Program-made: the position numbers and the translations under genes | Notes under the pieces: generated by a model | Told to the model about the DNA's origin: nothing | Databases searched by the model: none | The model's input: only the letters and a program-made list of their open reading frames with translations | DNA from: Anaerolineaceae bacterium | Lineage (GTDB): Bacteria; Chloroflexota; Anaerolineae; Anaerolineales; Anaerolineaceae | DNA length: 64,000 nucleotides | Reading direction: 5' to 3' | Assembly: GCA_016841525.1 (NCBI GenBank) | Contig: JAENYZ010000002.1 | Location: 144,078-208,077, forward strand | In this document: piece by piece, positions 9,481-11,448 of the stretch | Layout: each line of letters starts with the position of its first letter | Position numbering within the stretch: the first letter of the stretch is position 1

Positions 9481-9630
9481 TATTCTTAATCAACTAATTG
9501 ATATGTTAAATCAATATCTGTACTTCGACCAAAGCCAACAGCTTAGATTGCCACGTTGGTCTCTTTGCAGTGATAAAAAAGCTATCATTGCGACGAGCCG
9601 CAAAGCGGCGAGGTGGCAATCTCGGAGAGA
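9481..9630. repeat. Intergenic palindromic repeat, copy 1
   Basis: A 150-bp unit beginning TATTCTTAATCAACTAA. Its second half is a palindrome opened by GATTGCCAC and closed by GTGGCAATC, with internal GC-rich arms. Such GATTGCCAC...GTGGCAATC palindromes are common dispersed elements in many bacterial genomes (recalled knowledge). The next 150-bp unit starts directly after it, at 9631. Confidence 0.75.
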
Positions 9631-9729
9631 TATTCATTAATCAACTAACTGATGTGGTAATCAAAATCTAAATATTGGCCATAGCTAACAGCTTAGACTG
9701 CCACGCCCCTTCACTACGTTCAGGGGCTC
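9631..9729. repeat. Intergenic palindromic repeat, copy 2 (left part, split by the IS)
   Basis: The first ~75 bases match copy 1 at most positions, including CAACTAA.TGAT and AACAGCTTAGA.TGCCACG. It then forms an inner hairpin GCCCCT/AGGGGC and stops at CTC (9727-9729). The missing right arm, GCAGTGACAGCTG, lies at 11007-11019 on the other side of the IS. It pairs with CAGCT and ACTGC of the left arm, which shows that one palindrome was split by insertion. Confidence 0.75.
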
Positions 9730-9732
9730 CAT

Positions 9733-9738
9733 TAGACT
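9733..9738 (+). promoter_or_regulatory. -10 half of a promoter formed when the IS ends join
   Basis: TAGACT lies at the left end of the element. In a circular form (right end, TC core, left end) it falls exactly 17 bases after the TTGACA at 10987-10992. In the integrated copy no good -35 precedes it. Confidence 0.65.
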
Positions 9739-9744
9739 TAGTTA

Positions 9745-9945
9745 TGCTAATATGAGAATAGTCGAACAAGGGCTGAATAAGTCTATTTCGCTCAAAGGAA
9801 GACAAGCCTAAACTGCGATGAAGACCCAGCCCTTGTGTGGATCAAAGCTAGATAGTAATGACGTCCACGAGACTGATAATGGAGGAAGCTCAATCCACAA
9901 TGTTCGACTACGCTCATTTTACACCCAAATTACCAGGAGGACGAA
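9745..9945 (+). ncRNA. Predicted bridge RNA of the IS110 element
   Basis: Three nested pairings are visible: AGTCGAA/TTCGACT closing the structure (9760-9766 with 9903-9909), ACAAGGGCTG/CAGCCCTTGT (9766-9775 with 9827-9836), and TGTGGAT/ATCCACA (9836-9842 with 9893-9899). The first loop should be the target loop: ACTGCGA (9812-9818) is the reverse complement of the right target TCGCAGT, and GCTC (9790-9793) matches the left target up to the core. The second should be the donor loop: ATAGTAAT (9852-9859) is identical to the right element end, and TAATGGA (9877-9883) is the reverse complement of the left end TCCATTA. Guide order matches the IS621 model. The 5' end is inferred from the junction promoter. 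Confidence 0.82.
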
Positions 9946-11001
9946 ATGAACAAACCAGGATTGTATGTTGGCATAGATATCGCATCAAAAACCTTTACTG
10001 CAGCGATAGGAAAATTTGAAGAAGAGACAGGATGGGGAATTGTTGCAAAACCAACAAATTTTGAAAATAAATATGATTCATTCAGTAAATTTTTACATTG
10101 GCTGAAAACCCATAATGTGCAGGCAGAGGAGTGCATCGTTTGCATGGAATCCACAGGAGTTTATGGTGAAGCTCTAGCCTATTTTATGGTTAGCAACAAT
10201 TACAAGACAGTCATCGAAGCCCCATTGAAAGTAAAACGAGCCTTCGATCCAGAGGGGCACAAAAGCGATCCTGTCGACAGTTGTCAAATAGCTGAATATG
10301 CATATCGCTTTTTTGATCAACTTAGGTATTGGAAGCCAAAAGATGTGGTCATAGAGCAGCTCAAGACCCTTCTAACAGTCCGAGAACAGCTTGTAGAACA
10401 GAGAACAGCACATAAAAACGCAAATCGGGCAATCGTGCGAAAGGTGGTCAGAACGCCCTTAGCGGAAACCATTCATGAAAAGGCGGTTCAGGAACTCACG
10501 AAGCACATTGAGGCGGTTGAAAAAGAAAGTAAACGCCTGATCAATGACGATCCATCCTCCCGAGAATTACAAAAATTATTTGAATCAGTTCCTGGTATTG
10601 GATCAATCCTGGCCACGTTTTTAGTGGTGACAATGTATTCAGCGCCAGAACCTTATAACCCCAAGGCATTGGCTGCTTATATTGGCATCTGTCCTTATGA
10701 GAACAGCAGTGGAACATCAAGACACAAGAAAGCTACCTCAAGGCATTATGGGACTTCACCCATGCGTCGGTTGATCTATTTGGCATCCATGTCTGTCAGG
10801 CAACATTGTCCTGTTTTTAAGCGATATTTTCTTAGAAAGCTGGCTGAAGGGAAACAAAAACAATTGATACTGAATAACATTGCTAATAAGCTTTTGAAGA
10901 TTGTTTGTGCCATCGCCCGCACCAGGACTCCGTATATCCCTGGTTATCGTTCAATCCATCCACAACTATTAACTATAAAACAACCCTTGACAGTGTCATA
11001 G
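9946..11001 (+). CDS. IS110-family transposase (bridge-RNA-guided recombinase)
   Basis: The 351 residues have the standard two-domain layout. A RuvC-like DEDD domain at the N-terminus shows YVGIDIAS (Asp), CMESTGVYGEAL (Glu) and HKSDPVDSCQIAEYA (two Asp). A coiled region follows, then the C-terminal Transposase_20 domain: VPGIGSILA, AAYIGICPYENSSGTSRHKK with the putative nucleophilic Ser, and PMRRLIYLASM. AGGAGG at 9935-9940 precedes the ATG. The gene's last codons also contain the -35 hexamer TTGACA and end 4 bases before the core. Confidence 0.95.
   Translation: MNKPGLYVGIDIASKTFTAAIGKFEEETGWGIVAKPTNFENKYDSFSKFLHWLKTHNVQAEECIVCMESTGVYGEALAYFMVSNNYKTVIEAPLKVKRAFDPEGHKSDPVDSCQIAEYAYRFFDQLRYWKPKDVVIEQLKTLLTVREQLVEQRTAHKNANRAIVRKVVRTPLAETIHEKAVQELTKHIEAVEKESKRLINDDPSSRELQKLFESVPGIGSILATFLVVTMYSAPEPYNPKALAAYIGICPYENSSGTSRHKKATSRHYGTSPMRRLIYLASMSVRQHCPVFKRYFLRKLAEGKQKQLILNNIANKLLKIVCAIARTRTPYIPGYRSIHPQLLTIKQPLTVS
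10987..10992 (+). promoter_or_regulatory. -35 half of the IS circle-junction promoter
   Basis: TTGACA lies inside the last transposase codons, 12 bases from the core. Joined to the left end it pairs with TAGACT at 17-base spacing and would drive bridge RNA and transposase from the excised circle, as described for IS621. Confidence 0.65.
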
Positions 11002-11020
11002 TAATCGCAGTGACAGCTGA

Positions 11021-11220
11021 CCCTCCACGGGGATTGAGAGGGCATATTTTGAGTAATAAAGCAACAAAGCACCTGGAGGAATACTCTGGCAGGTTTATTA
11101 AAGATTAATGATTTTACGATTTTTTTTGGGGGGAGGTGAAAATTCTATATTAAATAGCAAATGCCCCCACGGGAATACCCTGAAGGGCACTTTGTTCGAA
11201 TCCCGGTTTTGGCACCTGTC
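11021..11220. repeat. 200-bp tandem repeat, copy A, with a degraded tRNA-Glu 3' half
   Basis: Starts CCCTCCACGGGGATTGAG and is repeated from 11221 with an exact 200-base offset. The ends are nearly identical between copies while the middle (about 11054-11120) differs. Read on the minus strand, 11161-11220 contains the acceptor, T-arm and part of the anticodon arm of tRNA-Glu. It is interrupted by a 19-base insertion inside the T-loop (11176-11194, containing the hairpin CCCTGAAGGG) and broken off after the variable region. Confidence 0.75.
11162..11213 (-). pseudogene. Broken tRNA-Glu fragment
   Basis: The minus-strand GCCAAAACCGGGATTCGAA and TTCCCGTGGGGGCA segments of the downstream tRNA are present here but separated by 19 unrelated bases. 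The 5' acceptor strand, D-arm and an intact anticodon stem are absent, so it cannot fold as a tRNA. Confidence 0.7.
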
Positions 11221-11364
11221 CCCTCCACGGGGATTGAGAGGGCATATTTTGAGCAGATAACGCAATAATGCACCTGCAGGAATATTCTGGTAGGTTAATT
11301 TGCAAATTCCTGATTTTACGATTTTTTCTTTGGGGGAGGTGAAAATTCTATATTAAATAGCAAA
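11221..11364. repeat. 200-bp tandem repeat, copy B, running into the intact tRNA-Glu
   Basis: The same CCCTCCACGGGGATTGAG start as copy A, and the same GGAGGTGAAAATTCTATATT block before the tRNA 3' end. On the minus strand this is the region directly downstream of the tRNA. No protein gene is visible in it. Confidence 0.7.
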
Positions 11365-11437
11365 TGCCCCCACGGGAATTCGAATCCCGGTTTTGGCCTT
11401 GAGAGGGCCACGTCCTGGGCCACTAGACGATGGGGGC
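11365..11437 (-). tRNA. tRNA-Glu (anticodon CTC)
   Basis: Folds as a complete cloverleaf: acceptor GCCCCCA/TGGGGGC, D-arm GTC..GAC, anticodon stem TGGCC/GGCCA with loop CTCTCAA, and T-arm CGGGA/TCCCG with loop TTCGAAT. Discriminator A; no encoded CCA. Confidence 0.95.
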
Positions 11438-11448
11438 AAGTGAAAGAA

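What the first reader, a model, noticed from the sequence alone, without database searches (positions are those of the whole stretch)
9728..11006. A complete IS110 element whose bridge-RNA guides can be read against its own ends and target
ACTGCGA (9812-9818) is complementary to the right target TCGCAGT (11005-11011). ATAGTAAT (9852-9859) is identical to the right element end (10998-11005). TAATGGA (9877-9883) is complementary to the left end TCCATTA (9728-9734). GCTC (9790-9793) matches the left target only over four bases. Each guide lies on the expected side of its loop, and all agree on a TC core. That four independent matches fit one model by chance is unlikely. The IS621 bridge-RNA mechanism is established; its application to this element is inference.
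Basis: partly seen in the sequence, partly recalled or inferred. Interest (0 to 1): 0.9.

Follow-up and report, generated by a model that had tools for sequence, protein, structure and literature searches.

The report
RNA-guided jumping gene (IS110 family)
This is a complete, probably working jumping gene of a known RNA-guided kind (IS110 with a bridge RNA), and comparison with twelve relatives shows that its guide RNA really does change in step with the DNA ends and landing sites it is supposed to read.

Summary
Confirmed. Window 9728-11006 is an intact IS110-group insertion sequence in a Brevefilum-like (Anaerolineaceae) genome. Twelve related elements share its ends, its TC core and a leader RNA in the same place. 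A covariance model built without the window finds this RNA at 9766-9899 (E 4.5e-24, the only hit in the window). Across 13 elements the guides co-vary with their DNA: RTG with right target at 63/65 positions (44 with exchanged partners), LDG with left donor at 64/65 (50); 0 of 100,000 permutations reach either. The base after the RTG follows donor position 7 (13/13), the 'handshake' pairing of IS621. The left-target guide is weak here (GC plus the TC core) and in several relatives. The mechanism is the established one, so this is a new member of a known kind; its TC core and outer helix differ from IS621. Nothing was tested at the bench.

The parts
9728..11006 (+). Complete IS110-group insertion sequence, core to core (1279 bp)
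   Evidence: Same ends in 12 other elements
9728..9729 (+). Left copy of the TC core
   Evidence: Shared dinucleotide at both junctions in all 13 elements
11005..11006 (+). Right copy of the TC core
9721..9727 (+). Left target (LT), CAGGGGC; position 7 is C9727
   Evidence: the base before the core is C in all but one of the left targets used in the covariation test and of the five G389 copies
11005..11011 (+). Right target (RT), TCGCAGT, right border of a dispersed palindromic repeat
10998..11005 (+). Left donor (LD, right element end) ATAGTAAT
   Evidence: co-varies with LDG
9728..9734 (+). Right donor (RD, left element end) TCCATTA
9733..9738 (+). -10 half TAGACT of the junction promoter
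   Evidence: Same place in all 13 elements
10987..10992 (+). -35 half TTGACA of the junction promoter (inside the 3' end of tnp)
   Evidence: 17-bp spacer to TAGACT across the RE-LE junction in all 13 elements
9752..9917 (+). Bridge RNA with outer helix P0 (about 9752-9766 with 9903-9917)
   Evidence: Inverted repeat; own 5'/3' strands pair far better than exchanged partners, 0 of 20,000
9766..9899 (+). Two-loop domain of the bridge RNA (TBL then DBL)
   Evidence: CM built from 12 relatives only: 125.9 bits, E 4.5e-24, sole hit in 64 kb
9766..9836 (+). Target-binding loop; basal stem 9766-9775/9827-9836, inner stem GUCU/AGAC
   Evidence: 9 of 10 basal pairs have compensatory changes
9786..9793 (+). 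Left target guide region UUUCGCUC (only GCUC matches LT)
9812..9818 (+). Right target guide ACUGCGA; next base U9819 is the handshake base facing donor A11004
   Evidence: Covariation 63/65 and 13/13
9837..9898 (+). Donor-binding loop; basal stem GUGGAU/AUCCAC, upper hairpin GUC 9863-9865/GAC 9871-9873
   Evidence: helices 3 and 4
9852..9859 (+). Left donor guide AUAGUAAU
   Evidence: Covariation 64/65
9877..9883 (+). Right donor guide UAAUGGA; next base G9884 faces target C9727
9946..11001 (+). IS110 transposase/recombinase, 351 aa (D11, E68, D108, D111, S255)
   Evidence: Pfam PF01548 8.9e-25 and PF02371 4.7e-15; IS621 8wt6 2e-22; residues invariant in nine proteins

Best explanation
An autonomous IS110-group insertion sequence that moves by bridge-RNA-guided recombination. 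Inferred cycle: the DEDD/serine recombinase excises the element as a circle; joining the right and left ends builds a promoter (TTGACA-17 bp-TAGACT) that transcribes the leader as a bridge RNA; its donor loop pairs with the circle junction (AGTAATCCATTA) and its target loop pairs with a site of the form GC-TC-GCARTGA, mainly through the 7-nt right guide; exchange occurs at the shared TC dinucleotide. Shown here by sequence: ends, core, RNA structure, guide-site covariation, promoter halves, catalytic residues. Inferred from IS621: chemistry, circle, transcription, activity.
For: Exact matches at the given coordinates. Thirteen elements with the same boundaries. RTG-RT 63/65 and LDG-LD 64/65 with 0/100,000 permutations; after collapsing identical combinations 60 and 1 per 100,000; handshake base 13/13 (144/100,000); LTG-LT 52/72 (0/100,000). 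RNA structure with 15 of 24 pairs showing compensatory change, 0/500 shuffles; CM built without the window hits 9766-9899 only. Outer helix. One bRNA, five sites, always TC-GCAATGACA, in G389. Protein related to the IS621 and ISCro4 structures, catalytic residues kept. Promoter halves in all 13. Pairing rules from PMC11208160 and PMC11208158.
Against: The left target guide (UUUCGC) matches only two non-core bases of this site. The element is single copy in its genome apart from a decayed 3' remnant, no empty site was recovered, and there are no reads, RNA data or activity data. The left end is nearly invariant, so RDG pairing is not tested by covariation. The LTG register was set by eye in two relatives (L009, L038).
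Confidence: 0.95

Rival explanations
1. The matches are chance strings picked from a 200-nt leader, and the element uses an unguided IS110 mechanism.
Against: All four ordered matches in 0 of 20,000 shuffles; guide-site covariation over distinct elements.
Confidence: 0.01
2. The target is chosen by the protein, or by the hairpin shape of the palindromic repeats, and the RNA matches only reflect that the RNA copied a repeat arm.
For: Left targets often end in a hairpin arm (combined p 0.007, but only a minority individually); in the window and several relatives the right target is the border of a dispersed palindromic repeat; the LTG match is weak.
Against: RTG changes with the type of right border (GCAAT, GCAGT, AGAAT, GCGAT, AGGAT, GCAAC), and LDG and the handshake base follow the element's own end, which has nothing to do with the repeats.
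Confidence: 0.04
3. The functional RNA is a short processed 'seekRNA' (about 60-75 nt, target part) rather than the full two-loop bridge RNA.
For: Reported for ISEc21 of the IS110 family (PMC11187229).
Against: Donor loop, LDG covariation and the outer helix enclosing both loops are conserved, so the whole unit of about 165 nt is under selection; this rival differs only in RNA processing.
Confidence: 0.1

Closest known systems
IS621 (E. coli, IS110 group; bridge RNA, PDB 8wt6)
   Same: Leader-encoded two-loop RNA; LTG/RTG/LDG/RDG on the same sides; LDG of 8 nt ending at the first core base; right-side pairing over positions 8-14; split RDG (UA + 0-2 nt + AUGGA here; nine RNA nt to seven DNA nt in IS621); handshake base; circle-junction promoter; target in palindromic repeats; left position 4 poorly matched in both
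   Different: TC instead of CT core; outer helix enclosing both loops (IS621 has a 5' stem-loop and its DBL runs to the 3' end); protein only distantly similar (2e-22); LTG matching looser
ISEc21 (IS110 family, seekRNA, PMC11187229)
   Same: 5' non-coding region with guide RNA, circle with junction promoter, specific target
   Different: RNA described as short seekRNA; different target
ISCro4 (PDB 9t56)
   Same: IS110-family recombinase at a similar sequence distance
   Different: Core, guides and target not compared here
IS1111 group
   Same: DEDD recombinase and guide RNA
   Different: Guide RNA downstream of tnp and long subterminal inverted repeats; neither is present here

Membership tests
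IS110 family transposase | RuvC-like DEDD domain plus Tnp domain with catalytic serine | tested here: met
   PF01548 and PF02371 above cut-off; E68, D108, D111, S255-G256 aligned to IS621 (D11 lies outside that local alignment); all five residues invariant in nine relatives
IS110 group (versus IS1111) | Guide RNA in a long left end, short right end, no long subterminal inverted repeats | tested here: met
   LE 218 bp, RE ends 5 nt after the stop codon; bRNA in LE; no 12-nt inverted repeat near both ends
Bridge RNA system | Structured two-loop RNA conserved by covariation | tested here: met
Bridge RNA system | Target loop complementary to left and right target | tested here: met
   RTG 63/65 with covariation; LTG significant over the set but only 2 of 6 non-core bases in the window
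Bridge RNA system | Donor loop complementary to the element's own ends | tested here: met
   LDG 64/65 with covariation; RDG match nearly invariant
Bridge RNA system | Core dinucleotide shared by target and donor | tested here: met
   TC in all elements
IS621 subgroup | CT core with near-invariant T at position 9 | tested here: not met
   TC core; register fixed by the handshake base
IS621 subgroup | 5' stem-loop followed by TBL and DBL, DBL at the 3' end | tested here: not met
   Outer helix P0 encloses TBL and DBL (compared with PMC11208158)
IS110 family | Circular intermediate with active junction promoter | tested here: inconclusive
   Promoter halves with exact 17-bp spacer in 13/13; the circle itself is not observable here
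IS110 family | RNA-guided recombination activity | not testable with these tools
   Needs expression and a recombination assay

The most novel reading that the evidence does not exclude
A separate bridge-RNA lineage with a TC core and a two-loop RNA closed by an outer helix, whose target choice rests almost wholly on a 7-nt right guide plus the bases next to the core, so that one RNA can enter many palindromic repeats with unlike left arms.
Probability: 0.4. Interest if true: 0.5.

Novelty: new member of a known kind. Interest (0 to 1): 0.4.

Why it matters
It shows that a bridge RNA can be read correctly from one raw sequence and then verified by covariation, and it gives a compact set of natural elements (Anaerolineae, one Dadabacteria) with a core dinucleotide other than CT and relaxed left targeting. 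Bridge recombinases are candidates for DNA insertion tools, and core and left-guide constraints limit their target range.

Tried and rejected
Other copies in the same genome: only a decayed 3' fragment. Empty site in sister genome G006: no match, uninformative. Joined target in own genome: no second copy of the whole site. Rfam: no family match to the leader. Viral contigs: none; plasmids: one distant match. Hairpin shape as the left-target signal: only weak. Short CM hits in G169 and G190 as possible RNA-only elements: they stop at contig ends, so rejected. Reading the core as NT (CT in target, AT/TT in donor): rejected because the RNA base opposite that position follows the donor, as a handshake base should.

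Full report
What was checked. All strings and coordinates in the finding are correct. The region holds one long ORF, 9946-11001, 351 aa, with both IS110 domains, similar to the solved IS621 and ISCro4 recombinases. In 20,000 dinucleotide shuffles of the leader, the four matches never occurred together in order.

Relatives. The closest named relatives come from a Brevefilum MAG (two copies), other Chloroflexi and one Dadabacteria MAG; whole-genome searches added more in the same order. Apart from the own genome, none of 400 genomes drawn across the phylum had a close match. The own genome holds only this copy and a decayed 3' fragment with an in-frame stop, whose right end abuts AGCAATGACA.

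Boundaries. In 13 distinct elements the left end is TCCA(T/C)TAGACT and the right end TTGAC(A/T)NNNTCATNGNNNTC, with TC the only sequence shared by both junctions. Element lengths are 1213-1320 bp.

RNA structure. An alignment of the leaders of 12 relatives, without the window, supports a target loop and a donor loop: 93% of cells paired, 15 of 24 pairs with compensatory changes, no shuffle as good, and sliding the partner by one base drops pairing to 40-44%. The inner GUCU/AGAC stem never varies, so it is not tested. One relative (L009) was entered with its donor-loop tandem duplication reduced to one copy. A covariance model from these hits the window only at 9766-9899, 125.9 bits. An outer helix joins sequences before the target loop and after the donor loop; own partners sum to -215 kcal/mol against -100 for exchanged partners, 0 of 20,000. 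It is clear in 11 of 13 elements, weak in L038 and not seen in L039.

Guides. Right target guide against right target: 63 of 65 non-core positions match, mean 44 with exchanged partners; left donor guide against left donor: 64 of 65, mean 50; no permutation in 100,000 reached either, and 60 and 1 in 100,000 did after identical combinations were collapsed. Elements are related, so these are not strict probabilities, but the changes are spread over several guide types (ACUGCGA, AUUGCGA, AUCGCGA, AUUCUGA, AUCCUGA, GUUGCGA). The RNA base after the right target guide is U where donor position 7 is A and A where it is T, 13 of 13: the handshake pairing described for IS621 (PMC11208158). The base after the right donor guide is G in the relatives examined, and target position 7 is C in nearly all sites. 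This fixes the register and the TC core. As in IS621 the LDG ends at the first core base. The RDG is UA + 0-2 further nt + AUGGA, like the split RDG of IS621.

Left target. In the window only GC + TC match. Over 12 elements positions -1 and -2 match 12/12, -5 10/12, -4 only 4/12. In IS621 the natural target also departs from the guide at position 4 (ATCAGGCCTAC against ATCGGGCCTAC). Five copies with one RNA (one copy differs slightly) in G389 all have TC-GCAATGACA on the right, while the left ends in CCC in four and CAC in one. The LTG register was chosen by eye in two elements.

Target. TCGCARTGACA occurs 13 times in the genome against 1 for the reversed pattern, and most of the TCGCAATGACA sites lie at the right border of a repeat GAGATTGCTTC...TCGCAATGACA. 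In the window the left arm of that repeat reads GACTGCC (about 9696) and the right border GCAGT, so the repeat is an imperfect palindrome. The element thus lands at the border of dispersed palindromic repeats, as IS621 does in REP sequences (PMC11208160).

Promoter. TTGACA at 10987-10992 and TAGACT at 9733-9738 come to a 17-bp spacing only when the ends are joined; the same spacing holds for all 13. This matches the circle-junction promoter reported for IS621 and others. The -35 half is part of the last codons of tnp.

Verdict. Mechanistic steps (excision, transcription, exchange) are inferred from IS621. The lineage differs from IS621 in its TC core and outer helix; I could not check whether other described IS110 elements share these, since the held papers give structures of the others only as figures.

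Noticed in passing
L117 (G183:C9), reverse strand, about 279 bp from position 1470 of the reverse complement: An internally deleted relative: both ends, promoter halves and full bridge RNA kept, nearly all of tnp lost, right target TCAGAATGGCA, in a genome that also holds a full copy (L046). A possible non-autonomous, bridge-RNA-carrying mini-element.
   Followed up: partly
window 11021-11440: Two copies (about 200 bp apart) of a block that includes a tRNA 3' end (TTCGAATCCCGGTTTTGGC); the second belongs to tRNA-Glu(CTC) 11364-11438 (minus), the first looks like a duplicated fragment.
   Followed up: partly
G000:C3:84614-85306 and window 11021, 11221: A string close to CCTCCACGGGGATTGAGAGGGC recurs about six times at 119-184 bp spacing elsewhere in the genome.
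   Followed up: no
window 9486-9705: Two 79-88% identical direct repeats, 150 bp apart, left of the element, in the palindromic repeat region that was the target.
   Followed up: no
window 9710-9715: TTCACT lies 17 bp before the -10 half TAGACT in the integrated state, a 4/6 match to a -35 box; the target repeat could give weak transcription of the inserted copy.
   Followed up: no
L009 (G078:C517), reverse strand: The donor loop carries a short tandem duplication (GTAATGG TTACCGTCCCAGACGAGTAATGG), doubling part of the RDG region.
   Followed up: no
L121, L124, L127 (G169): Near-identical copies whose left target guides differ by one or two bases, at different left targets; possible natural guide drift.
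   Followed up: partly
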